IMG/VR virus record: IMGVR_UViG_3300030380_003749
Coordinates: 1-21,214 of that record
Reading direction: 5' to 3' (one strand)
Length of the DNA: 21,214 nt
Source of the DNA: a virus
Positions 1-20,595 of this stretch are shown piece by piece (position 1 is the stretch's first letter; each line of letters begins with the position of its first letter). The notes under the pieces were generated by a model. The model was not told where the DNA came from, ran no database searches, and was given only the letters and a program-made list of their open reading frames with translations. The position numbers and the translations under genes were made by a program.

Positions 1-483
1 GACAAAGAGTTTATAGCATCACGCATCGCATCACTCACAGGTGGTGTAGGTGTGATCAACGTCGGTGGGAATACTGACCTAGAGCAGAAGGAGCTGTATG
101 ACCGCGTTGATGACGCTGTGTGCGCAGTTCGCTCAGCACTTGTGGAGGGGATACTACCTGGAGGAGGGCTCGCTCTATGGGAGGCTAGTGAGAAAATTGT
201 GAAATCAAAAACGATCGCTGACGCGATGTTGTATAGAGCCTTGCAGGCTCCACTAGACCAGATACTTTTAAATGGGGGGATCACGAATTGGTCACCTGAG
301 ATATCTAAGCAAGGCCATGGTCTTGATGTGAAAAACAAAAAAACGGGAGACATGATTAAGATGGGCATCATTGATCCTATGAAAGTAACAAAGACCGCCC
401 TGCAAAATGCTGTCTCAGTGGCAGTTACTATTTTATCAACCAACGCCATAGTTACTATGGCCCGAACATATGACTCAAAATGA
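1..483 (+). CDS. groEL: Phage chaperonin GroEL (Hsp60), C-terminal part, 5' end outside window
   Basis: Reading frame 1 is open from the first base to the TGA at 481-483, giving the last 160 residues of a GroEL-type chaperonin, the ATP-driven folding chamber. The fragment covers the end of the apical/intermediate domains and the equatorial domain. Visible hallmarks are RVDDAV, which holds the aspartate equivalent to E. coli Asp398 needed for ATP hydrolysis, EGILPGGG at the nucleotide pocket, and MGIIDPMKVTK, which holds the equivalent of Asp495. The protein ends VTMARTYDSK and lacks the GGM-repeat tail of bacterial GroEL. The missing tail and the divergence fit a phage copy, not a host housekeeping gene. 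It overlaps the next gene by ATGA and is two genes upstream of a groES-like gene, the reverse of the usual bacterial groES-groEL order. The match in motifs and their spacing is strong. Confidence 0.94.
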   Translation, partial: DKEFIASRIASLTGGVGVINVGGNTDLEQKELYDRVDDAVCAVRSALVEGILPGGGLALWEASEKIVKSKTIADAMLYRALQAPLDQILLNGGITNWSPEISKQGHGLDVKNKKTGDMIKMGIIDPMKVTKTALQNAVSVAVTILSTNAIVTMARTYDSK

Positions 484-716
484 AAAAAATAATTATACTA
501 CTTAGCTTATTAAGCTTATCGTTTACAACAATTGATGACCCCTACTGTGATGGTTGGGAGGACGGCTACTGCGAGGGGTGGCAATATGTGAAAGGGGAGT
601 GGGCTGTATGCCCCGTACCGCCTATATGCCCTATACCTCGTATTAATGAAGAGGGCTACCGAGATGGCTATAACAGAGGATTTGTAAAAGGACGTAGACA
701 GGCTAAAAATCCATGA
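480..716 (+). CDS. Small exported cysteine-rich protein between groEL and groES
   Basis: 78 residues. The N-terminus looks like a signal peptide: MKK, a hydrophobic stretch at about residues 4-16 (IIILLSLLSLSF) and a probable cleavage region near TT-ID. The mature part has four cysteines (23, 31, 44, 50) and glycine/aromatic repeats such as DGWEDGY, CEGW and RDGYNRGF, with a basic C-terminus. There is no lipobox cysteine right after the hydrophobic core, so a soluble periplasmic protein is more likely than a lipoprotein. The start overlaps the groEL stop as ATGA and the stop overlaps the next start the same way, so all three genes are probably translationally coupled. I recall similar proteins from flavobacterial phage genomes but know no function. 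Placement inside a chaperonin operon is odd for an exported protein. Confidence 0.82.
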   Translation: MKKIIILLSLLSLSFTTIDDPYCDGWEDGYCEGWQYVKGEWAVCPVPPICPIPRINEEGYRDGYNRGFVKGRRQAKNP

Positions 717-970
717 GGCCAATAGGAAAATACGTTGTTATTAAAACTATAGAGGAGGAGCTTAAAACCTCCTCTGGTCTGTTACTATCTGCTGAAGATG
801 CGAATCAACTTCGCTATAAGAAGGGCCGGATTGTCGCAGTAGGCACTGATGTTGTAGCTATTGATAAAGACAGCGAGATATACTACGATAAACGAGCGGG
901 TTATACGATGCTTATTCATGATGAGCCTTATACTATAATTCGAGAGAATGACATTGTTCTTGTCGTATAG
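713..970 (+). CDS. groES: GroES-like cochaperonin (cpn10 fold)
   Basis: 85 residues, slightly shorter than the 95-97 of bacterial GroES. The N-terminus MRPIGKYVVIK matches the GroES pattern RPLxDRVxVK. The segment SSGLLLSAEDANQ lies where the mobile loop (GGIVL in GroES) contacts the GroEL apical domain. KKGRIVAVG matches the GroES strand TRGEVLAVG, and the end RENDIVLVV matches the ESDILAIV terminus. It would cap the GroEL ring encoded two genes upstream. The start overlaps the preceding stop (ATGA). Its last 38 bases overlap the 3' end of the convergent minus-strand gene. The mobile-loop hydrophobic triplet (LLL rather than IVL) is conserved in character, so it should be functional. The assignment as a cpn10-fold protein is confident; pairing with the phage GroEL and not the host GroEL is inferred. 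Confidence 0.9.
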   Translation: MRPIGKYVVIKTIEEELKTSSGLLLSAEDANQLRYKKGRIVAVGTDVVAIDKDSEIYYDKRAGYTMLIHDEPYTIIRENDIVLVV

Positions 971-1385
971 CCTCGTTCATTTTTTCAATCATCTTGCGGT
1001 AGACCTTATCGCTATACCCGGCTTGTGCTAAAAAGATAGGGTTCTTGCTTTTAGCCATTGGAATGGGACCCCCCTCTAGCTTATCATATATTGATCGGAT
1101 AAGGTGTGAGCTCTTAAATGATAGGCCGTATAGGGCTTTAGGCCCTCCAAACTTATAGGGCTTTATCACATCTATCCACCCTTCGCGTCTAAGTTTTTCA
1201 AATCTATTTCTATTCCAACCAAGTAAAGCATTAAACTCTTTGAACTTATCAACATTGAAGTATTCTTCACTGTATAAAAAAAAGAGCATGTCTAGCTCTT
1301 GGGTGTTTAGTTTATATTTACGCTTTACGAAATAACGGATGACTCTCCAGTATTTCATGTAGTCTCTTTCACGTTTATTTTTCAT
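933..1385 (-). CDS. Winged-helix-like DNA-binding protein, putative transcriptional regulator
   Basis: Only convincing minus-strand gene of the window, 150 residues from the chosen ATG at 1385. A longer reading from an ATG at 1454 exists, but it would run through the promoter motifs and the start of the rightward gene. The chosen ATG is preceded by AATCTA, as at 20657. A helix-rich block (about 27-70: NTQELDMLFFLY, FNVDKFKEFNALLGW, NRFEKLRREGWI) looks like the helices of a MarR-like winged helix. VIKPYKFGGPKALYGLS would be the wing, and HLIRSIYDKLEG a dimerisation helix. The N-terminus is very basic. I recall similar proteins in flavobacterial phages, often as a single gene opposing late genes. 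Its divergent position beside the first late-gene promoter suggests it controls the switch. The fold is inferred from sequence pattern only. Confidence 0.82.
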   Translation of the reverse strand: MKNKRERDYMKYWRVIRYFVKRKYKLNTQELDMLFFLYSEEYFNVDKFKEFNALLGWNRNRFEKLRREGWIDVIKPYKFGGPKALYGLSFKSSHLIRSIYDKLEGGPIPMAKSKNPIFLAQAGYSDKVYRKMIEKMNEAIRQEQCHSLEL

Positions 1386-1399
1386 TAGATTAAATTTTA

Positions 1400-1407
1400 T
1401 AACTTTG
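1400..1407 (+). promoter_or_regulatory. Bacteroidetes-type -7 promoter element (TAACTTTG) for the rightward operon
   Basis: TAACTTTG fits TAnnTTTG, the -7 consensus of the Bacteroidetes primary sigma factor. It lies 17 bases before the ATG at 1425, in the only divergent gap of the window. A clear -33 TTTG is not seen; the region 1374-1383 is T-rich. A start of transcription near 1414 would give a very short leader. Confidence 0.55.
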
Positions 1408-1409
1408 TA

Positions 1410-1417
1410 TAAAGATA
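1410..1417 (-). promoter_or_regulatory. Candidate leftward -7 element (TATCTTTA) for the regulator gene
   Basis: On the minus strand this reads TATCTTTA, one base off TAnnTTTG and identical to the motif at 14355-14362. It ends 24 bases before the chosen start at 1385, followed by a leader ending AATCTA-ATG as at 20657. It lies only two bases from the rightward motif at 1400-1407, so polymerase could not occupy both at once. Confidence 0.4.
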
Positions 1418-1424
1418 ACAAGTT

Positions 1425-1769
1425 ATGACAAATGATAGAAAAGAAGTAAGACATTACATGGGAGCAGCAGGGATATTTGTCCTGATTGTGGCTCTATTGT
1501 TGTTTCTTAGCTTTGTCGAGATACCACCTGTCAACAAAGATTTGTTTGTTGCTATTGTGGGTACTCTTGTATCTTCACTTGGTATGGTGGTCTATACTAT
1601 AATTGGTCAGCAGCCTGATGAGGTGAATAAACTTCAGAAGAAAAACGAGTCGCTTACTTCCATAAATGATCAGATGGAGACGCGTAACGATCAGCTTGAG
1701 CAAATGATAATTGATATGCAAAAAGAAATGATTGAAAAATTAACCGATCTTAAAACACACAAAAAATAA
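1425..1769 (+). CDS. Small membrane protein with C-terminal coiled coil
   Basis: 114 residues. Two hydrophobic segments at about 12-32 (MGAAGIFVLIVALLLFLSF) and 42-61 (FVAIVGTLVSSLGMVVYTII) form a hairpin. A charged helical tail follows (about 65-112), with heptad-like spacing in KLQKKNESLTSIN and QLEQMIIDMQKEM, suggesting a coiled coil. First gene of the rightward run, behind the TAACTTTG motif. It could be a holin-like or virion membrane-interacting protein, but nothing diagnostic is present. A second protein of one membrane span plus coiled coil follows at 2683, so the two may act together. Confidence 0.8.
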   Translation: MTNDRKEVRHYMGAAGIFVLIVALLLFLSFVEIPPVNKDLFVAIVGTLVSSLGMVVYTIIGQQPDEVNKLQKKNESLTSINDQMETRNDQLEQMIIDMQKEMIEKLTDLKTHKK

Positions 1770-1773
1770 AATT

Positions 1774-1893
1774 ATGGCAAACACTAAAAAAACTGCAGAT
1801 AAAAAAGCTGCACCGAAAAAAGAAAAAAAAGAAGCTGCTCCAAAAACAAGACAACATTGGAATGGTGAAAAGTATATAACTGTAAATATTTAA
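1774..1893 (+). CDS. Very small lysine/alanine-rich basic protein
   Basis: 39 residues, beginning MANTKKTADKKAAPKK. The N-terminal two thirds are almost only K, A, P and E, resembling the tails of histone-like proteins. The C-terminus QHWNGEKYITVNI is of ordinary composition and may be the folded or docking part. Net charge is about +7 by count. The start is preceded by AAATT (AAATTATG), a context shared by at least six other starts here. Only three bases separate its stop from the next ATG. No function recognised; DNA or RNA binding is an inference from charge. Confidence 0.68.
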   Translation: MANTKKTADKKAAPKKEKKEAAPKTRQHWNGEKYITVNI

Positions 1894-1896
1894 ATT

Positions 1897-2049
1897 ATGC
1901 CGACTGTAAAAACTAAAAACATGACAAGAGTATTTCCTTACAACGCAGTAGGGAAAGCGCAAGCCGATTCATTTGCTAAAATGAAAAAAGGAAAAATATC
2001 TTATAACCCTGGTTATGGGATGGAGAAGAAAATGGGATCAGGCTACTAA
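1897..2049 (+). CDS. Small basic protein beginning MPTVK
   Basis: 50 residues: MPTVKTKNMTRVFPYNAVGK, then KAQADSFAKMKKGK and a glycine/tyrosine/methionine-rich end (YNPGYGMEKKMGSGY). The start MPTVK recurs in the protein at 3335, hinting at a shared origin or docking segment. The FPY plus lysine pattern resembles tiny proteins I recall from many marine phages, without known function. It has an AAATTATG start context, and its stop overlaps the next start in TAATG, implying translational coupling. Confidence 0.7.
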   Translation: MPTVKTKNMTRVFPYNAVGKAQADSFAKMKKGKISYNPGYGMEKKMGSGY

Positions 2050-2204
2050 TGGCTGGACGTACCAAGAAAAAAGGAAACAAGATTTGCCCTGCGGGCATAG
2101 CTTGGGCTAAGCGTACTTTTGACAAGTACCCCTCTGCTTATGCTAATATGGCCGCAAGCAAATATTGTAAAGATCCTAATTACGCAAAAAAAAGTAAAAG
2201 ATAA
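2049..2204 (+). CDS. Small cationic protein with conserved AW-KR-YPSAYAN-ASK core and two cysteines
   Basis: 51 residues with about 14 K/R against 2 acidic residues. The central pattern CPAGIAWAKRTFDKYPSAY followed by ANMAASKYCKD is one I recognise from small proteins in many marine phages and some large eukaryotic viruses; its function is unknown as far as I know. Two cysteines (13 and 40) flank the conserved core. Both ends overlap the neighbours as TAATG, so expression is coupled to the rest of the cluster. A virion-packaged or nucleic-acid-binding role is plausible from charge and conservation, but not shown by the sequence. Confidence 0.75.
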   Translation: MAGRTKKKGNKICPAGIAWAKRTFDKYPSAYANMAASKYCKDPNYAKKSKR

Positions 2205-2326
2205 TGGACGGAAAAAAATTAAAAGAGATAGCCTCTCAACTAAGAAAGGCATCAGCCTTGCATAAGGGTCAAGCTGCAAAGATTGATCGTATGATTAAGG
2301 TAATGAATAAAAGCAAAAAGAAATGA
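2204..2326 (+). CDS. Very small helical basic protein
   Basis: 40 residues predicted to be almost wholly helical: LKEIASQLRKASALHKGQA and AKIDRMIKVMNKSKKK form two short amphipathic helices around a glycine. The start overlaps the previous stop (TAATG) and its own stop overlaps the next start (ATGA). I recall similar small helical hairpins in marine phage late regions, without function. It could be a packaging or virion accessory protein. Confidence 0.66.
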   Translation: MDGKKLKEIASQLRKASALHKGQAAKIDRMIKVMNKSKKK

Positions 2327-2454
2327 GTAAGATGAATAAAAAAATGCGGAAGAAGAAACGTCCTGCATTTGGTATGCTTAGTGTAAAAGCTGGTATAGAT
2401 AATAACCCCAATCCTACTCAGGCCGATAGAATAGCTGGAGCTCAAATGAAATAA
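2323..2454 (+). CDS. Very small basic protein with NPNPTQADRIAGA segment
   Basis: 43 residues. The lysine/arginine-rich N-terminus (MSKMNKKMRKKKRP) is joined to a neutral C-terminal segment (SVKAGIDNNPNPTQADRIAG). The two halves suggest a nucleic-acid- or membrane-binding tail on a docking segment. The ATGA overlap with the previous gene supports it as a translated gene. The C-terminal segment looks familiar from other marine phage mini-proteins; no function known. Confidence 0.64.
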   Translation: MSKMNKKMRKKKRPAFGMLSVKAGIDNNPNPTQADRIAGAQMK

Positions 2455-2456
2455 AG

Positions 2457-2690
2457 GTGGGTGAGTTAAAAAAATGGCGAGAGCAGAAGTGGGTTCGCAT
2501 AGGAACCGACGGCAAGATTAAGGGTCCATGCGGGACTAGCAAGAATAAAAAAAATCCTGACCGCTGCTTGCCACTTGCCAAAGCTAGGCGACTTAGTAAA
2601 AAAGCATTAGCAGCGACTGCAAAAAAGAAAAAAGCTTCTGGCGGCAGAAAACAATTTATAAGAAACACACGAGCAGTAAGAAATGCCTAA
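2457..2690 (+). CDS. Small basic protein with GPCGTSK-N-KNPDRCLP motif, GTG start
   Basis: 77 residues. There is no in-frame ATG: upstream the frame is closed by TAG at 2427-2429 and the first usable start is GTG at 2457, two bases after the preceding stop. The core WVRIGTDGKIKGPCGTSK and NPDRCLPLAKARRLSK, with cysteines 25 and 37, is a pattern I recognise from small phage and large-virus proteins of unknown function. The second half is a lysine-rich helix (AATAKKKKASGGRK). The stop overlaps the start of the next gene. It may bind nucleic acid; the two cysteines could pair or contribute to a metal site between monomers. Confidence 0.75.
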   Translation: MGELKKWREQKWVRIGTDGKIKGPCGTSKNKKNPDRCLPLAKARRLSKKALAATAKKKKASGGRKQFIRNTRAVRNA

Positions 2691-3006
2691 TAAAGCATCT
2701 TTATCGCAAGACTCTAAAGTTAGTCTAGATATAAAGGCGCTTGTAGGGATGGTTATAGGAATTGTATCTATAGCTGGTGTTTGGTTTTCATTAACAGCAG
2801 AGATTGCACAACTACAATTAAACGTAGTTCGGATGGAGGATGCTGTTCATTTAAACGAAGAGTTTAGAATTAAATGGCCAAGGGGAGAGATGGGCGCGCT
2901 TCCAGATGACGCTAAGCAAGATTTAAAAATATTGTATCTTCAATCTGAAGTTGAAGAACTAAGAAAAATAGTAAAAGAATTAGAAATAGCTAACGCAAAA
3001 AAATAA
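2683..3006 (+). CDS. Single-span membrane protein with coiled coil
   Basis: 107 residues. One membrane span at about 18-38 (IKALVGMVIGIVSIAGVWF) follows a short polar N-terminus. It is followed by a helical region with AEIAQLQLNVVRMEDAV and a terminal coiled coil (LYLQSEVEELRKIVKELE). The arrangement recalls phage spanin-like or holin-associated proteins, but no lysis gene is adjacent, so that remains a guess. Overlaps its neighbours at both ends: the previous stop, and TAATG with the next gene. Confidence 0.8.
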   Translation: MPNKASLSQDSKVSLDIKALVGMVIGIVSIAGVWFSLTAEIAQLQLNVVRMEDAVHLNEEFRIKWPRGEMGALPDDAKQDLKILYLQSEVEELRKIVKELEIANAKK

Positions 3007-3296
3007 TGGCTAATAAATCTAAAATGAAATGCAATGTCGTAACCAAAAGCGATAGAGCAGGAAAAAAGAAAATGGTAAAAGCTTGTTCGGGAGGTAAAGA
3101 GAAGCTAATACATTTTGGAGCGACTGGATATGGACATAATTATTCTTCTGCCGCACGCAAATCTTTTCGGGCTAGACACAAGTGTGGTACCGCTACTTCA
3201 AAGCTTACGGCAAGATATTGGTCTTGCAAAAAACTATGGTCAGGACCAGGAGGTTCGACTAAAAGCTCACCCAAAAATAGGAAAGGAAAATATTAG
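3006..3296 (+). CDS. Small basic four-cysteine protein (LIHFGATGYGHNYS / ARYWSCKKLW)
   Basis: 96 residues, strongly basic. The pattern KMVKACSGGKEKLIHFGA, GYGHNYS, KSFRARHKC and LTARYWSCKKLWSG belongs to a small-protein type I have seen in many marine phages and some large DNA viruses, with no known function. Four cysteines (9, 27, 60, 74) and several histidines could form a zinc site or disulfides. The tail GGSTKSSPKNRKGK is disordered and basic. Coupled to the preceding gene by TAATG. Last gene before the next promoter motif, so it may end one transcription unit. Confidence 0.78.
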   Translation: MANKSKMKCNVVTKSDRAGKKKMVKACSGGKEKLIHFGATGYGHNYSSAARKSFRARHKCGTATSKLTARYWSCKKLWSGPGGSTKSSPKNRKGKY

Positions 3297-3304
3297 TATC
3301 TTTG
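3297..3304 (+). promoter_or_regulatory. Bacteroidetes-type -7 element (TATCTTTG) before the 3335 gene
   Basis: TATCTTTG is an exact TAnnTTTG match just after the stop at 3296, in a 38-base AT-rich gap, and 30 bases before the ATG at 3335. No TTTG is seen at the expected -33 distance. A start near 3311 would leave a leader of about 24 bases. Confidence 0.55.
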
Positions 3305-3334
3305 TTGTATGTTTAATTTAAAAATACAGAAATT

Positions 3335-3562
3335 ATGCCTACAGTAAAATATTCACAAGGATACAACTCTAGACTAGACGAGTCACTAGGAATGAAAAAT
3401 GGTAAAAAATCTCAAAGCTTAAAATCTCGAAGAGATGAAAGTAAGGCAATGTCAAAAAAACTTTATGGACATGCGTATGGAGGAGATCATTCAATGGCTT
3501 ACGAGTCACATTCAGAAAAGGGAAGTGTAAAAAGTCACATTGGATCTTTGATTAGAAAGTAA
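3335..3562 (+). CDS. Small basic protein, DESLGMKNGK / SRRDESK type
   Basis: 75 residues. Starts MPTVK as the 1897 protein does, then RLDESLGMKNGKKSQSLK and SRRDESKAMSKKLYGHAYGG, with a histidine/serine-rich second half and a basic end. The repeated R-x-DES pattern is familiar from small marine phage proteins of unknown function. First gene behind the TATCTTTG motif, with an AAATTATG start context. The stop overlaps the next start in TAATG. Low complexity suggests it is disordered or folds only on binding. Confidence 0.72.
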   Translation: MPTVKYSQGYNSRLDESLGMKNGKKSQSLKSRRDESKAMSKKLYGHAYGGDHSMAYESHSEKGSVKSHIGSLIRK

Positions 3563-3768
3563 TGGCAGTTAGAGGTAGAACAAAAAGAGGTGCTTTTCCT
3601 GAGATAAAGGAAAAGAACCAAGGTAAGTTTACTCGTTGGGTAAAGAACAACATGCCTGGTAAAAGCACTTGTAGTGCTGCTTCGGCTGTAATGAGAAATA
3701 AGTCTAAATATTCAAAGGGTATAGTTGCTATGGCTAACTACGCCAATAACTTTGGATGTAAAAAATAA
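3562..3768 (+). CDS. Small basic protein with two cysteines (KSTCSAASAVM-NK-KYSKG)
   Basis: 68 residues. After a basic N-terminus (AVRGRTKRG) comes a helical part: KFTRWVKNNMPGKSTCSAA, then VMRNKSKYSKGIVAMANYA and NNFGCKK. Cysteines at 37 and 66 bracket the helices. It resembles the 2049 protein in general plan (MA-GRTK start, aromatic ANY/AN segment, C-terminal Cys-Lys), though I cannot show homology by eye. Start overlaps the preceding stop. No function recognised. Confidence 0.72.
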   Translation: MAVRGRTKRGAFPEIKEKNQGKFTRWVKNNMPGKSTCSAASAVMRNKSKYSKGIVAMANYANNFGCKK

Positions 3769-3772
3769 TAAA

Positions 3773-3919
3773 ATGAAATCAAGAGGGTTTGGAGATACAG
3801 TTGCGAAGTTTACAAAAGCCACAGGTATTAAATATGTAGTCGACAAGGTTACAGATGGAGACTGTGGATGCGATGAAAGACGTGACACCCTAAATAGAGT
3901 ATTTCCATATAAAAGATAA
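3773..3919 (+). CDS. Small protein with DCGC-ERR-LN-FPYK motif
   Basis: 48 residues from the ATG at 3773. The same frame stays open upstream inside the previous gene, but this ATG follows that gene's stop by four bases and is A-rich upstream. The N-terminal half is a short helix or hinge (GFGDTVAKFTKATGIKYVV). The end DGDCGCDERRDTLNRVFPYK is a motif I recognise as recurring, alone or at protein ends, in marine Bacteroidetes phages. The paired cysteines (31 and 33) with nearby acidic residues suggest a metal or disulfide role. Function unknown. Confidence 0.75.
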   Translation: MKSRGFGDTVAKFTKATGIKYVVDKVTDGDCGCDERRDTLNRVFPYKR

Positions 3920-3924
3920 TAACT

Positions 3925-4434
3925 ATGGCATATCAAAAATTACAAGCAGGTAAAGCATTTACAGTAAATCCAAGTGATAATACTAATTTGCCTGACCCAG
4001 GTGTCAAGGGACCAACTGGCGCCACAACAGGAACAGGCGGAGCGGGCAAACAGCTTATAGACTCAAACAGAACTGGCGATAGCGCAAGTGATTTTGCTAC
4101 CCTAAAGTTTACATTAGCTGGAATCAAGCCAGGTATGATTGCTATTAATACAACTGACGGCACTCAATCAGAAGTAGCTTCAGTAATAGATGCTACTACT
4201 ATAGAATTAAGAGAAGCTATATTTGGGTCCTCACCTAAGAATTATGCAATATATGGTGCTGAAAAAGACGGCGCTGTGTTCTATGTAGGTGGCACAGGAA
4301 ATGTAAAAATTACTACTGCTGCGGGTGACGATGTTACCCTAACAGGTTTGCCTACGGGATCTTTTGTTCCTGTACAAACTATAAAGATTTTTAGTACAGG
4401 CACAACAGCCACTAATATTGTAGCTTTGTGGTAA
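3925..4434 (+). CDS. Putative virion structural protein (small beta-rich)
   Basis: 169 residues, rich in T, G, A and V, with predicted beta strands. It has a glycine-rich linker (GPTGATTGTGGAGK) and a C-terminal domain ending SFVPVQTIKIFSTGTTATN. That ending is a pattern I recall in small structural proteins of marine phages, where GNVKITTAAGDDVTLTGL precedes a SFxPVxxxKxFSTGTTATNI tail. It starts the block of surface genes. It might be a head decoration, head-completion or fibre-base protein; the sequence does not decide. Confidence 0.75.
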   Translation: MAYQKLQAGKAFTVNPSDNTNLPDPGVKGPTGATTGTGGAGKQLIDSNRTGDSASDFATLKFTLAGIKPGMIAINTTDGTQSEVASVIDATTIELREAIFGSSPKNYAIYGAEKDGAVFYVGGTGNVKITTAAGDDVTLTGLPTGSFVPVQTIKIFSTGTTATNIVALW

Positions 4435-13734: not shown

Positions 13735-14225
13735 GCAAGCCTAAGAAAAAATTTGGCCAGACGGTTGTAGGGAAACTTTTAAAAGCCTCTGTAGGTTTAA
13801 TAAATCCAACTCTTGGAAGTATTATACAAGGAGACATGTCTGTAGAGCAAGTAGTCTCATCAATTAAAAATTCAGATGCGCCAGCAGAAGACAAGATAAG
13901 AGCTCAAGAGATGGTGCTCGAAGCTTATGAGGCTGAAGTTCAAGACAGAGCGTCTGCTAGGCAGAGAGAAATAGCAGCTCTAAATTCAGGATCAAATGAT
14001 GTTCTTTTTAAAACTGTAGGGTGGGGAATTACTCTTTGTTTTATAGGTGTTATTGCAGGAGCAATAGGTTTGTGGCAAATACCTGAAGAGTCTCAGAGAT
14101 TATTCGACATGGGATTCGGAGCAGTAGTAGCAGCCTTTACTCAAGTAATAGGATACTACTTTGGATCGTCGGCAGGGAGCAAACAAAAAACTAATCTAAT
14201 CAACGGCAATGGCGAAAGCAATTAA
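13731..14225 (+). CDS. Putative holin of the 3TM / GTA-holin type
   Basis: 164 residues. The cytoplasmic N-terminal half is helical (KLLKASVGLINPTLGSII, then EDKIRAQEMVLEAYEAEVQD), followed by DRASARQREIA, a hallmark of this family. Two clear membrane spans lie at about 93-115 (LFKTVGWGITLCFIGVIAGAI) and 126-144 (MGFGAVVAAFTQVIGYYF). The tail GSSAGSKQKTNL matches the YYFGSSxGSKxK end of these proteins. Gene-transfer-agent and phage 3TM holins have the same DRxSAR and YYFGSS signatures. Starts in ATGA overlap with the lysin. It is the best-supported holin candidate of the window. Confidence 0.8.
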   Translation: MSKPKKKFGQTVVGKLLKASVGLINPTLGSIIQGDMSVEQVVSSIKNSDAPAEDKIRAQEMVLEAYEAEVQDRASARQREIAALNSGSNDVLFKTVGWGITLCFIGVIAGAIGLWQIPEESQRLFDMGFGAVVAAFTQVIGYYFGSSAGSKQKTNLINGNGESN

Positions 14226-14346
14226 TATAGCAACTTACCAAACTAAATCAAAAGTTAGAAGACCAGGGATACACTCAAAAACAAAAAGCTCAGCTCTTAA
14301 GTCTTCTAAGAACTACCGTAAGCTTTACCGCGGGCAAGGGCGTTAA
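14209..14346 (+). CDS. Very small basic protein ending SKNY-KLYRGQGR
   Basis: 45 residues, mostly basic and serine-rich: KSKVRRPGIHSKTKSSALKS and SSKNYRKLYRGQGR. The RRPGxHSK...LKxSKNYxKxYRGQGR pattern is one I recognise from tiny proteins of many marine phages, frequently close to lysis or terminase genes. Function unknown; a nucleic-acid or packaging role is plausible from charge. It starts 17 bases inside the end of the preceding gene and is separated from the next gene by a promoter-like motif. Confidence 0.75.
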   Translation: MAKAINIATYQTKSKVRRPGIHSKTKSSALKSSKNYRKLYRGQGR

Positions 14347-14384: not shown

Positions 14385-14609
14385 ATGGATATAAGGAAAA
14401 TTTCCGTAGGTCCAGATTACAAATCTGGGGCAATGCACTACATAGTAGGCCAAGAAATACTTAATGGCAAATACTTTATACACCTAATTCAACAAGACTC
14501 CAATAAACAATCTATTAAGATATGGATTCAACGCAAAGATGAAATATTATTATGGAAAGAGTTTAGTTCGGACGTGCCCGTGTCTATAGAATATAATATT
14601 AACTTTTAA
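14385..14609 (+). CDS. Hypothetical protein (74 aa)
   Basis: 74 residues from the ATG at 14385; a TTG 33 bases upstream is in frame but falls in the promoter-like region. Sequence alternates hydrophobic and charged residues in beta-strand style: MHYIVGQEILNGKYFIHLIQ, IKIWIQRKDEILLWKEF. This suggests a small beta-barrel or sheet protein, with no membrane span. First gene of the packaging block and coupled to the next by TAATG. I do not recognise it. Confidence 0.75.
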   Translation: MDIRKISVGPDYKSGAMHYIVGQEILNGKYFIHLIQQDSNKQSIKIWIQRKDEILLWKEFSSDVPVSIEYNINF

Positions 14610-15172
14610 TGAAATCACCGTTTTACTTTATAGTTGAGCCTGTAGAAGGCAAACGATATAACAATACTAAAAATATATCAGGGTTAGATTTTATTACTAG
14701 CACAAGCGAGGAGGATTTTACAGTATCAAATCGAAAAGGTATTGTTAAGGAAGTTCCTTTAAACTACCAAGGTCCAATTAAAATTGGAGACATACTTTTG
14801 GTTCACCACAACGTGTTTAAATATTACAACGATATGAAAGGCAGACAGAAAAGTGGTAAAAGTTTTTTCAAGGATAATTTATTTTTTATAGACAATGATC
14901 AGTTTTTTATGTATAATCAAAATAATCAGTGGTATAGCCACGATAGATATTGTTTTGTAAAGCCAATAAAAAAACAAAAGTCATTTATGTTTAAGCGTGG
15001 AAAAGAAGAGCCATTAATGGGAGAAATGGTTTTTCCAAATGATTATCTTTTATCTCAAGGAATAAAACCAGGGGCGCAAGTAAGTTTTCAGCCAGACAGT
15101 GAGTATGAGTTTGATGTAGATGGAGAGAAACTTTATCGAATGTATGACCATCAAATAACCTTAAGCTTATGA
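14609..15172 (+). CDS. Second cpn10/GroES-like protein, marine-phage type
   Basis: 187 residues. The core resembles a divergent GroES-fold family found near terminase genes in marine phages: NRKGIVKEVPLNY (strand equal to the GroES RGEVLAVG), IKIGDILLVHHNVFKYYNDM, SFFKDNLFFIDNDQFFMY and YCFVKPIKK. About 41-120 is the core. A C-terminal extension (125-187) carries MGEMVFPN, IKPGAQVSFQPDSEYEF and YRMYDHQI, which could be a second small beta domain. Unlike the protein at 713 it has no obvious GroEL-contacting mobile loop. It may assist folding or assembly of a virion protein, but chaperone function is inferred from resemblance only. ATG overlaps the previous stop (TAATG). Confidence 0.65.
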   Translation: MKSPFYFIVEPVEGKRYNNTKNISGLDFITSTSEEDFTVSNRKGIVKEVPLNYQGPIKIGDILLVHHNVFKYYNDMKGRQKSGKSFFKDNLFFIDNDQFFMYNQNNQWYSHDRYCFVKPIKKQKSFMFKRGKEEPLMGEMVFPNDYLLSQGIKPGAQVSFQPDSEYEFDVDGEKLYRMYDHQITLSL

Positions 15173-15657
15173 ATTATATAATGATAGATGATTTTTTAGA
15201 TGATCCTAACAACTATGTTATAGATGTATTAAAAGAAAAGTTTGAGGATGTGGCTGATGGTGATACTGTGTTTAAAGGCATTCAAAAAAGATCAATGGAT
15301 GAGATGCAATATAAAATTGAAGAAGCTTATCCTGATTATGTAGTAACATACAATTTTATAAGACAATCACCTCTTAATCAAGAAGAGCCCAACTTTATAC
15401 ATACAGACGAGATGATGGGTGATAAGACAATTTTATTGTATTTAAATAAACATCATCCTGTAGAGGACGGCACTACTCTTTATAAGTTTAATAAAATTTC
15501 AGATGATTATCTACCTATGTGTACTTTTTATGCACAGTATAATAGGTTAGTGGTTTTTGATTCTTCAATACCTCATTCAAGAAATATATTTGAAAACTTT
15601 GGAAAAGGAGAGTATTCGCGCTTAGTTCAGGTAATATTTTTAAAATTAAAACCATGA
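15169..15657 (+). CDS. 2-oxoglutarate/Fe(II) oxygenase-like protein
   Basis: 162 residues. The metal and cosubstrate signature of prolyl-hydroxylase-type oxygenases is visible: His78-x-Asp80 in NFIHTDEMMGDKTILLYLN, distal His136 in RLVVFDSSIPHSRNIF, and Arg151 in GEYSRLVQVIFL, the usual 2-oxoglutarate carboxylate ligand about 15 residues downstream. N-terminal MIDDFLDDPNNYV is typical of these folds. Such genes are common in marine phages, where hydroxylation of proteins or nucleic acids is suspected. It lies between a cpn10-like gene and the terminase operon, with ATGA overlaps on both sides. Substrate unknown; an all-iron-ligands-present enzyme is likely active. Confidence 0.8.
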   Translation: MNYIMIDDFLDDPNNYVIDVLKEKFEDVADGDTVFKGIQKRSMDEMQYKIEEAYPDYVVTYNFIRQSPLNQEEPNFIHTDEMMGDKTILLYLNKHHPVEDGTTLYKFNKISDDYLPMCTFYAQYNRLVVFDSSIPHSRNIFENFGKGEYSRLVQVIFLKLKP

Positions 15658-18159: not shown

Positions 18160-20595
18160 ATGAAAGACGTAAAAATTAATATTTCATCTGTAGGTTTTCC
18201 CAGTCAGTTTGTATCAGACTCAGAAAAAGCCACCAAGGAATTTGGATTACAGATAGGACAAGCGATACAATATGAGTGGTTTAGAAAAGATTCAAATGGC
18301 TGTAGGTACTATAGTCAGTGGAGAGATTTTAACAGATTAAGACTATATGCAAGAGGAGAGCAGTCAATAGCTAAATATAAAAACGAATTAGCTGTTGATG
18401 GTGACTTGTCTTATTTAAATTTAGATTGGACACCTGTTCCTATTCTTCCAAAGTTTGTAGACGTTGTAGTAAATGGTATGCAAGATCGACTTTTTAAGGT
18501 AAAGGCATACGCCCAAGATGCTTTGTCTCAAGCCAAAAGAAGTAAATATCAAAATATGATAGAGGGGCAAATGGCAGCTAAAGAACCACTTCAAGTCTTA
18601 CAAGAAAACACTGGTTTTAATCCTTTCACCATGGATCCAGATGATTTACCTGCTTCAGATGAAGAGCTTTCGTTATACATGAATTTAAATTATAAGCCTG
18701 CTATAGAAATAGCTGAAGAGGAAGCAATTGACACAATGTTTGCCGAAAGTCATTACGAAGATGTAAGAAAAAGAATAGATTACGATCAGATGGTAGTGGG
18801 TGTAGGTATGGCTAAACATGAGTTTCTTCCCGGAGCGGGAGTTAAAATATCTTATGTAGATCCTGCAAATGTTGTTTACAGTTATACTGAAGATCCTTTT
18901 TTTAAAGATTGTTTTTATTGGGGAGAAATTAAAACAGTTTCTTTAACGGAGCTTAACAAAATTGATCCTTCTCTTACCAAAGAAGATCTTGAAGAAATTT
19001 CTAAATACAGTCAAAGCTGGTATGATTATTATAATACAGCTCAGTATTATGAAAATGATATATTTTATCGTGACACTTGTACTCTTATGTATTTTAATTA
19101 TAAGTCAACTAAAAAAATGGTTTATAAGAAAAAAATTAATGAAGGAGGCGCAACAAGGATGATAGAAAAAGATGACACATTTAATCCACCAGAAGAAATG
19201 TTGGAGGATGGAAAGTTTGAAAAAATCGAAAAGACAATAGATGTATGGTATGATGGTGTAATGGTTATGGGAACAAACATTATTCTTAAATGGGAGCTAG
19301 CCAAAAACATGGTACGACCAAAATCATCTTCTCAGCACGCAATGCCTAATTATGTGGCTGCAGCTCCAAGAATGTATAAAGGGGTGATAGAGTCGTTAGT
19401 TAGAAGAATGATACCTTTTGCTGATCTAATACAAATGACTCATTTAAAATTACAACAAGTTATTGCTAGAGTAGTTCCAGATGGTGTATATATTGATGCA
19501 GATGGATTAAATGAAGTTGACTTAGGGACTGGAGCCGCTTATAATCCAGAAGACGCATTAAGGTTATATTTCCAAACAGGTAGTGTTATTGGCAGAAGTT
19601 ATACTCAAGAAGGTGAATATAATCAAGGAAAAGTACCGATACAACAATTAACTAGCAACTCAGGGGCTTCAAAAACTCAAATGCTTATAGCTAATTATAA
19701 CCACTACTTAGATATGATAAGATCAGTCACAGGTTTGAATGAAGCTAGAGATGGTTCAACTCCAAATCCAGATGCACTAGTTGGAGTTCAAAAATTAGCA
19801 GCCTTAAGTTCAAATACAGCTACCCGCCATATATTAGATGGAAGTCTTTACATATATCGTACGTTAGCAGAAGCGCTAACATATAGGGTAGCTGATATCT
19901 TAGAATTTTCAGATTTTAAAGAAGACTTTATAAATAAAATAGGAAAGTATAATGTAAGTATACTAGGCGAAATATCAAATCTGTATATTTATGACTTTGG
20001 AGTATTTATAGAGCTTTCTCCAGATGAAGAGCAAAAAGCAATGCTTGAGCAAAATATTCAAATGGCTTTATCTAAAGGTGATATAAATTTAGAAGACGCA
20101 ATAGATATCAGAGAAATAAAAAACCTAAAATTAGCCAATCAACTACTTAAGGTAAAGCGAAAGTCTAAGCAAGAACAAGATGAGCAGCGAGAAATGCAAA
20201 AGCAAGCCATGATTTCACAGCAACAACTTAAATCGCAAGAGATGGCTGCGCAAGTTGCTATACAAAAAATTGAACTTGAAACACAAGGGAAGCTTAAATA
20301 TAAGCAAGGTGAAATGCAGTTAGAGATTGAGCGCAATAAAGTAGAGGCGCAACTAAAAAGTCAACTTATGGAACAAGAGTTTAACTATAATCTTCAGTTA
20401 AGGCAAATGGATGGAATGGCATTATCACAACGTGAAAATTCAAGAGAAGAAGCTAAAAGCCAACGAATTAGTCAGCAAAATACAGAGCAGTCTAAATTAA
20501 TAAATCAGCGTAAAAATAATCTTCCACCTCAAAACTTTGAGTCAAATGAAGATAGTTTAGATGGTTTTGACTTGGCTGAGTTTGAGCCTAGATAG
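18160..20595 (+). CDS. Portal protein with long C-terminal glutamine-rich coiled coil
   Basis: 811 residues, in the range of large podovirus/P22-like portals. The ATG follows the terminase stop with no spacer. Typical features: MQDRLFKVKAYAQDALSQAK after the N-terminal WTPVPILPKFVDVVVNG, the wing and stem helices around RMIPFADLIQMTHLKLQQV, and VTGLNEARDGSTPNPDALVG, a conserved portal segment near the crown. The C-terminus from about residue 650 to 790 is a Q/E/K-rich coil (EQDEQREMQKQAMISQQQLK, EMAAQVAIQKIELE), probably the barrel. Portals form the dodecameric channel for DNA entry and neck attachment. The position between terminase and scaffold-like genes agrees. Confidence 0.9.
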   Translation: MKDVKINISSVGFPSQFVSDSEKATKEFGLQIGQAIQYEWFRKDSNGCRYYSQWRDFNRLRLYARGEQSIAKYKNELAVDGDLSYLNLDWTPVPILPKFVDVVVNGMQDRLFKVKAYAQDALSQAKRSKYQNMIEGQMAAKEPLQVLQENTGFNPFTMDPDDLPASDEELSLYMNLNYKPAIEIAEEEAIDTMFAESHYEDVRKRIDYDQMVVGVGMAKHEFLPGAGVKISYVDPANVVYSYTEDPFFKDCFYWGEIKTVSLTELNKIDPSLTKEDLEEISKYSQSWYDYYNTAQYYENDIFYRDTCTLMYFNYKSTKKMVYKKKINEGGATRMIEKDDTFNPPEEMLEDGKFEKIEKTIDVWYDGVMVMGTNIILKWELAKNMVRPKSSSQHAMPNYVAAAPRMYKGVIESLVRRMIPFADLIQMTHLKLQQVIARVVPDGVYIDADGLNEVDLGTGAAYNPEDALRLYFQTGSVIGRSYTQEGEYNQGKVPIQQLTSNSGASKTQMLIANYNHYLDMIRSVTGLNEARDGSTPNPDALVGVQKLAALSSNTATRHILDGSLYIYRTLAEALTYRVADILEFSDFKEDFINKIGKYNVSILGEISNLYIYDFGVFIELSPDEEQKAMLEQNIQMALSKGDINLEDAIDIREIKNLKLANQLLKVKRKSKQEQDEQREMQKQAMISQQQLKSQEMAAQVAIQKIELETQGKLKYKQGEMQLEIERNKVEAQLKSQLMEQEFNYNLQLRQMDGMALSQRENSREEAKSQRISQQNTEQSKLINQRKNNLPPQNFESNEDSLDGFDLAEFEPR

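What the first reader, a model, noticed from the sequence alone, without database searches (positions are those of the whole stretch)
1774..3919. Run of about ten translationally coupled mini-proteins, most of them strongly basic, several with conserved cysteines
Seen: small genes of 39 to 96 codons at 1774, 1897, 2049, 2204, 2323, 2457, 3006, 3335, 3562 and 3773, with stops and starts overlapping (TAATG, ATGA) or a few bases apart. Lysine/arginine content is very high, and several have fixed Cys/aromatic patterns (GPCGTSK...DRCLP, YPSAYAN...SKYC, ARYWSCKKLW, DCGC...FPYK). Known: patterns of this kind recur in small unassigned proteins of marine phages and some large viruses. Inference: so many tiny cationic proteins, co-expressed at the head of the virion gene block, could be a virion-packaged set that condenses DNA, or proteins injected with it, like a phage counterpart of protamines. 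A second such gene at 14209 sits by the packaging genes.
Basis: partly seen in the sequence, partly recalled or inferred. Interest (0 to 1): 0.75.

Follow-up and report, generated by a model that had tools for sequence, protein, structure and literature searches.

The report
Cluster of tiny basic phage proteins
A flavobacterial phage carries a conserved row of tiny, positively charged proteins whose relatives in other viruses sit among, or are fused to, the proteins that build the virus head, so at least part of the set is probably packed inside the virus particle, although nobody has yet shown what these proteins do.

Summary
Ten overlapping mini-genes lie at 1774-3919, most far more basic than other small genes of related phages, and all are under purifying selection (dN/dS 0.01-0.32).

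The run is composite, with conserved promoter-like sites before 1425 and 3335. The first unit holds P3 (2049), P6 (2457) and P7 (3006). The second (P8-P9-P10) leads into the tail-fibre genes.

P3 and P6 are a near-obligate pair: 105 of 105 distinct pairs share strand and order. In two unrelated phage types they lie among head genes (portal, scaffold, major capsid). P7 belongs with the unsolved viral protein Tlr6F/DUF5754. Its domain is fused to a portal-MuF protein reported in virions by LC-MS/MS and, in both orders, to XkdF prohead proteases, including ICP1 Gp125. A basic mini-protein family from sister blocks contains phi40:1 gp080, an MS/MS-proven virion protein.

Most likely P3, P6 and P7 are capsid-interior, DNA-associated proteins. 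Bulk protamine-like condensation is unsupported and implausible on stoichiometry. Virion presence of the window's own proteins is untested.

The parts
1400..1407 (+). TAACTTTG, Bacteroidetes-type -7 promoter-like element before unit 1
   Evidence: TAnnTTTG found within 70 bp upstream of the 1425-type gene in 9 of 10 relatives; the motif itself is not enriched in the window as a whole
1425..1769 (+). TM1: 114-aa protein with two hydrophobic stretches and a coiled-coil-like tail; first gene of unit 1, not basic
   Evidence: homologues in 17 loci; dN/dS 0.16
1774..1893 (+). a1: 39-aa Lys/Ala-rich basic mini-protein (+7)
   Evidence: homologues in 9 loci; dN/dS 0.32
1897..2049 (+). a2: 50-aa basic mini-protein (+8)
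   Evidence: homologues in 24 loci; dN/dS 0.12
2049..2204 (+). P3: 51-aa basic mini-protein (+12), CPxG...YPSAYANxAASKYC family (phrog_27331)
   Evidence: phrog_27331 E 1.8e-21; 22 invariant columns in 32 sequences; dN/dS 0.01; near-obligate partner of P6
2204..2326 (+). a4: 40-aa basic mini-protein (+10)
   Evidence: homologues in 21 loci; dN/dS 0.08
2323..2454 (+). a5: 43-aa basic mini-protein (+9)
   Evidence: homologues in 8 loci; dN/dS 0.08
2457..2690 (+). P6: 77-aa basic mini-protein (+21), WVRIGTDGxIxGxCGTSKxKxxPDRCLP family (phrog_23735), GTG start
   Evidence: phrog_23735 E 5.8e-28; 28 invariant columns in 36 sequences; model pLDDT 74; no PDB fold match
   Evidence: phrog_20984 E 2.2e-10
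3006..3296 (+). P7: 96-aa basic mini-protein (+23), phage branch of the Tlr6F/DUF5754 superfamily (phrog_7595, phrog_220)
   Evidence: phrog_220 E 5.1e-13, phrog_7595 E 2e-12; DUF5754 19.2 bits, below the 27.4 cut-off; homologue elemoB gp44 44 bits; model pLDDT 78, beta hairpin plus two helices; BFVD matches
3297..3304 (+). TATCTTTG, -7 promoter-like element at the P7/P8 junction, start of unit 2
   Evidence: TAnnTTTG in 17 of 22 relatives here; 0/20, 0/19, 0/21 and 0/22 upstream of P3, P6, P7 and FIB
3335..3562 (+). P8: 75-aa basic mini-protein (+8)
   Evidence: homologues in 33 loci; within 600 bp of P10 in 31 of 70 P10-found loci; dN/dS 0.08
3562..3768 (+). P9: 68-aa basic mini-protein (+14), two Cys
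   Evidence: homologues in 17 loci; dN/dS 0.08
3773..3919 (+). P10: 48-aa mini-protein (+4), GxGD...CGCxxR...LNxxFPY family
   Evidence: 9 invariant columns in 26 sequences; within 600 bp of the tail-fibre gene in 39 of 70 P10-found loci; dN/dS 0.08
3925..4434 (+). FIB: 169-aa tail-fibre-like protein, next gene of unit 2
   Evidence: phrog_12296 tail fiber E 1.9e-11; homologues in 43 loci
14209..14346 (+). RGQGR: 45-aa basic mini-protein (+13), linked to P3 in relatives
   Evidence: immediately upstream of P3 in L006, L008-L010, L020, L021

Best explanation
The run is two adjacent late transcription units of a flavobacterial podovirus. Unit 1 (1425-3296) ends with P3, P6 and P7, which are most likely small capsid-interior proteins: made late, taken up into the procapsid, where their basic surfaces hold them on the packaged DNA near the shell or portal, in modest copy number. 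Unit 2 (3335 onward: P8, P9, P10, tail-fibre genes) is most likely accessory to tail or fibre assembly. Shown: the genes, conservation, selection, module structure, P3-P6 pairing, head-gene neighbourhoods, and fusion of the P7 domain to a portal-MuF protein and to prohead proteases. Inferred: that the free-standing proteins are in virions, that they bind DNA, and everything about copy number and timing. Whether they are ejected into the host is open.
For: P3+P6: 77/80 loci found by P6 carry P3, and 79/80 found by P3 carry P6; 105/105 distinct pairs have the same strand and order. 17 of these pairs lie within 700 bp of head genes: 7 at portal/scaffold of phages with the window's own portal type and 10 at scaffold/major capsid of T7-like phages. 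The isolate P-SCSP2 has a P3 relative, a P6-like protein and other basic mini-proteins between scaffold and major capsid. P7 domain fusions: CL131 gp012 = portal + P7 + InPase + MuF, a portal reported in purified virions by LC-MS/MS (PMC6293099); Aeromonas phage phiA009 gp0107 = P7 + XkdF protease between portal and capsid genes; ICP1 Gp125 = XkdF protease + P7, opposite order, the predicted capsid-maturation protease (PMC9040626, PMC7567579). phi40:1 gp080, a virion protein by MS/MS, is homologous to a basic mini-protein sitting beside P3/P6 in sister blocks; phi40:1 gp069, basic and of similar size, is also MS/MS-proven. Strong purifying selection and high charge.
Against: No virion proteomics found for any phage carrying free-standing P3, P6 or P7. 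In about half of the distinct pairs (54 of 105) the block lies between GroES and the tail-fibre genes, not among head genes. No nucleic-acid-binding fold was recognised: no PDB match for P6 or P7 and no sequence match for P3, P6, P7 or P10. The phi40:1 gp080 family itself is not in the window. Fusion shows compatibility with the head interior, not that the free protein goes there.
Confidence: 0.5

Rival explanations
1. The proteins are made late but stay in the cell: small nucleic-acid- or ribosome-binding factors that reshape the dying host or help replication and packaging, and are not part of the particle.
For: Most blocks are beside GroES, lysis or fibre genes rather than head genes; many basic viral proteins are non-structural; P7 relatives also occur in eukaryotic viruses without a portal (PMC4642659).
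Against: P7 domains fused to portal-MuF and prohead protease; P3-P6 placed beside portal, scaffold or capsid genes in unrelated phages; phi40:1 gp080 in virions.
Confidence: 0.25
2. A phage protamine: bulk cationic proteins that neutralise and condense the packaged genome.
For: High Lys/Arg content; co-occurrence; some placement among head genes.
Against: Half-neutralising 60 kb needs about 517 copies of each, 34 MDa of protein against 39 MDa of DNA. Sequences are not low-complexity Arg tracts but conserved cores with fixed Cys and aromatics. Related isolates phi38:1 and phi19:3 have no detectable P3, P6 or P7 in the roughly two-thirds of each genome searched.
Confidence: 0.05
3. Proteins carried in the head and ejected with the DNA to protect it or disarm the host, functionally like T4 internal proteins.
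For: Small, basic, late-module genes; the P7 domain sits in a portal-InPase-MuF protein, a type of fusion known for cargo domains (own knowledge); mosaic gene content between relatives.
Against: Extreme conservation across phages of different lineages (P3 dN/dS 0.01) is unlike fast-evolving host-directed effectors; no similarity to known internal proteins was found.
Confidence: 0.15
4. Unrelated small morons gathered in a gene-acquisition hot spot, with no common function.
For: Gene content varies between relatives; the run decomposes into modules.
Against: Invariant P3-then-P6 order in 105 distinct pairs, conserved promoter-like site at one junction only, strong purifying selection.
Confidence: 0.05

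Closest known systems
Tlr6F / DUF5754 (PF19058), small viral protein of unknown function
   Same: P7 matches weakly itself; its homologue in elemoB matches above the curated cut-off. The family is known from polinton-like viruses, virophages, giant viruses and some phages (PMC4642659, PMC12220804). The P7 model also matches predicted proteins of Tunisvirus (E 0.002) and, weakly, an iridovirus.
   Different: The window copy scores below the cut-off (19.2 against 27.4 bits); it is a 96-aa phage form with extra C-terminal tail, encoded beside the P3-P6 pair.
Cellulophaga phage phi40:1 gp080 and gp069 (MS/MS virion proteins)
   Same: Small, strongly basic (+24 each, computed on the phi38:1 copies), encoded in the region before the endolysin of a related flavobacterial podovirus.
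   Different: gp080 is a different family, present in sister blocks but absent from the window; gp069 has no homologue in the loci searched other than its phi38:1 copy.
XkdF-type prohead protease with P7 domain (ICP1 Gp125; Aeromonas phage phiA009 gp0107)
   Same: Carries the P7 domain.
   Different: P7 here is free-standing and has no protease domain.
T4 internal proteins (IPI-IPIII)
   Same: Small basic phage proteins, the functional analogy for head cargo (own knowledge).
   Different: No sequence similarity detected; those are hypervariable (own knowledge), these are highly conserved.

Membership tests
Tlr6F / DUF5754 (PF19058) | Score above the curated Pfam cut-off (27.4 bits) | tested here: not met
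   Window P7 19.2 bits, E 0.0013
Tlr6F / DUF5754 (PF19058) | Homology through an intermediate that is a member | tested here: met
   elemoB gp44 44 bits; window P7 finds it by tblastn, 49% identity, E 7e-11
Tlr6F / DUF5754 (PF19058) | Same predicted fold in viral relatives | tested here: met
   BFVD matches E up to 1e-3: CL131 portal, ICP1 ORF125, XkdF protein; Tunisvirus 95-aa protein E 0.002. Models only.
Protamine-like genome condenser | Small and strongly cationic | tested here: met
Protamine-like genome condenser | Low-complexity Arg-rich chain without conserved fold | tested here: not met
   Lys-rich; 22 and 28 invariant columns in P3 and P6
Protamine-like genome condenser | Binds and condenses DNA; thousands of copies per particle | not testable with these tools
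   Charge budget argues against
T4-like internal head protein | Sequence similarity to known internal proteins | tested here: not met
   No such match in PHROGs or Pfam scans of the ten mini-proteins
T4-like internal head protein | Present inside the capsid, ejected with DNA | not testable with these tools
   Needs virion proteomics and ejection assay
phi40:1 gp080 virion protein family | A member is encoded in the window | tested here: not met
   phmmer with gp080 hits sister blocks but not the window

The most novel reading that the evidence does not exclude
A mosaic kit of tiny basic head-interior proteins, shared by unrelated tailed phages and including the phage branch of Tlr6F, acts as a common DNA-handling layer inside dsDNA virus capsids, with Tlr6F doing the same job in polinton-like and giant viruses.
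Probability: 0.2. Interest if true: 0.85.

Novelty: new variant of a known kind. Interest (0 to 1): 0.62.

Why it matters
Tlr6F has been recognised for a decade as conserved across polinton-like viruses, virophages, giant viruses and phages without any known function (PMC4642659). The fusions and gene neighbourhoods here give a concrete, testable hypothesis: it is a head-interior domain. The P3-P6 pair is rigidly kept, occurs in phages of different lineages, and has no function in PHROGs. Such proteins are easily missed in virion proteomics because they are tiny and Lys/Arg-rich.

Tried and rejected
PDB profile searches with P3, P6, P7 and P10 gave no credible relatives. Foldseek of the P6 and P7 models against the PDB gave nothing significant; partial SH2-like hits for P7 had E above 1 and were dismissed. 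A very diverse P7 alignment was too variable to scan genome contigs, so that scan was not made. TAnnTTTG is not enriched in the window as a whole (31 found, 27.6 expected), so only its conservation at specific junctions is used. The P-SCSP1u cryo-EM and P-SSP7 papers say nothing on small internal proteins in the passages searched. The passages of the Cellulophaga phage methylation paper that were read do not list small basic phi38:1 proteins. The 2013 PNAS paper that I believe to be behind the Cellulophaga phage proteomics is not held, so the MS/MS statement rests on the GenBank note of phi40:1. A P7 profile built from an alignment that already contains the CL131, phiA009 and GR7B sequences matches those by construction; their homology rests on the independent tblastn. 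ICP1 was not in that alignment. A first attempt to search the phage collection with a malformed reference failed.
Full report
What the window is. The window is a 21-kb virus record, itself possibly a fragment, of a podovirus of Flavobacteriia. Its TerL and portal fall in phrog_6681 and phrog_6547. By TerL, the nearest record is the uncultured MW202828.1 from Manatee Spring (75%), followed by Flavobacterium elemoviruses (47%) and, more distantly, Maribacter, Cellulophaga and Tenacibaculum phages. The gene order is GroEL fragment, GroES, mini-gene run, tail-fibre genes, holin-like gene, endolysin, second GroES-like protein, TerL, portal.

All ten ORFs are present at the stated positions, each has homologues, and pooled dN/dS among up to eight syntenic relatives is 0.01 for P3, 0.06 for P6 and P7, 0.08 for P8, P9 and P10, and at most 0.32. 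Synonymous sites are near saturation, so the ratios are approximate. Nine of eleven genes in the run exceed +0.10 net charge per residue, against 21 of 97 small genes in three related phages, P = 1.3e-4.

The run is two units. A Bacteroidetes-type TAnnTTTG element lies before gene 1425 in 9 of 10 relatives and at the P7/P8 junction in 17 of 22, but upstream of P3, P6, P7 and FIB in 0 of 20, 0 of 19, 0 of 21 and 0 of 22. The relatives are not independent, and the motif is not enriched in the window overall, so this is suggestive rather than proof of promoters. Linkage agrees with it. In 70 loci found by P10, the fibre gene is within 600 bp in 39, P7 in 32 and P8 in 31, whereas P3 and P6 occur anywhere in the locus in only 25 and 26.

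P3 and P6 are a near-obligate pair. Of 80 loci found by P6, 77 contain P3; of 80 found by P3, 79 contain P6. Among 105 distinct pairs, all are on one strand in the order P3 then P6, and 102 are within 1 kb of each other. Seven pairs lie within 700 bp of the portal, scaffold or capsid gene of phages with the window's portal type, and ten beside the scaffold or capsid gene of T7-like phages; the landmark proteins were checked against PHROGs, where the T7-like scaffold, portal-type connector and capsid are clear and the elemo-type 'scaffold' is an unknown-function family named here only from its position. Fifty-four lie between GroES and the tail-fibre gene, as in the window, 9 in a lysis block, and 25 could not be assigned. 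Among isolates, Prochlorococcus phage P-SCSP2 has a P3 relative, a P6-like protein and a DUF6321-like protein between its scaffold and capsid genes, and Pelagibacter phage HTVC106P has P7, P3 and a P6-like protein after its endolysin. The P6-like assignments in these two are from motif inspection; tblastn links them to each other only weakly.

P7 belongs with Tlr6F. Window P7 matches DUF5754 below the cut-off (19.2 of 27.4 bits), but its homologue elemoB gp44 reaches 44 bits. Tlr6F/DUF5754 is reported as conserved in polinton-like viruses, virophages, giant viruses and some phages, with no known function (PMC4642659; PMC12220804). The P7 model (pLDDT 78, a beta hairpin plus two helices) has no PDB match but matches viral models, including a Tunisvirus protein.

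P7 domains are built into head proteins. In Aphanizomenon phage CL131, gp012 is portal + P7 + InPase + MuF; the authors report the portal among 23 proteins identified by LC-MS/MS in CsCl-purified particles (PMC6293099). In Aeromonas phage phiA009, P7 precedes an XkdF prohead-protease domain in a gene between portal and capsid genes. In ICP1 Gp125 the order is reversed, protease then P7, in the capsid operon where Gp125 is the predicted maturation protease (PMC9040626, PMC7567579). The reversed order suggests separate joining events. All three carrier proteins work at or inside the procapsid.

A direct experimental anchor comes from a sister family. phi40:1 gp080 and gp069, small and strongly basic, are annotated as structural from experimental MS/MS (charge computed on the phi38:1 copies). 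A single-sequence search with gp080 finds basic mini-proteins beside P3 and P6 in related blocks (best E 1.2e-7). That family is absent from the window, so this shows what such blocks can encode, not what the window's proteins do.

Interpretation. The most economical reading is that P3, P6 and P7 are capsid-interior, DNA-associated proteins in modest numbers, and that P8-P10 serve the tail or fibre. Bulk condensation is unlikely: half-neutralising 60 kb would take about 517 copies of every protein, 34 MDa against 39 MDa of DNA (the 60-kb genome size is taken from relatives). The chief gap is the absence of virion proteomics for any phage with free-standing P3, P6 or P7. A non-virion late role remains a serious rival, since about half of the distinct pairs sit away from head genes.

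Novelty. Several of the families exist in PHROGs as unknown-function entries and P7 has a known distant family; what appears new is the rigid P3-P6 pair across unrelated phages, the module structure of the run, and the head-interior placement of the Tlr6F-like domain suggested by fusions. That no paper describes this was checked only within the open-access library searched.

Noticed in passing
L327 (ICP1) 19709-20545, - strand: ICP1 Gp125, the predicted capsid-maturation protease, carries a C-terminal P7/Tlr6F-like domain (aa 183-261) after its XkdF domain; not annotated in the record.
   Followed up: yes
window 14609-15172: A second, larger GroES-like protein (phrog_13932, E 2.2e-24) lies upstream of TerL, besides the GroES at 713-970.
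   Followed up: no
window 933-1454, - strand: An ORF matching phrog_17028 (unknown function, E 1.2e-9), with a very weak transcription-regulator match, overlaps the start of gene 1425 on the opposite strand.
   Followed up: no
window 15169-15657: Protein matching phrog_1644 'minor coat protein' (E 3.4e-16), just upstream of TerL.
   Followed up: no
window 480-716: Small Cys-rich protein with a signal-peptide-like start between GroEL and GroES.
   Followed up: no
L041 9306-9542: DUF6321 mini-protein next to P3-P6; the same domain forms the C-terminus of several large phage protein families (phrog_10346, phrog_3477, phrog_28131) of unknown function.
   Followed up: partly
OR575929.1 125400-125543 (hit H192): A human-gut phage, csAssE-Sib, encodes a relative of the virion protein phi40:1 gp080.
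   Followed up: no
L315 6980, L316 1429: P10 relatives sit between the major capsid and tail-tubular genes of T7-like phages, outside the fibre context.
   Followed up: no
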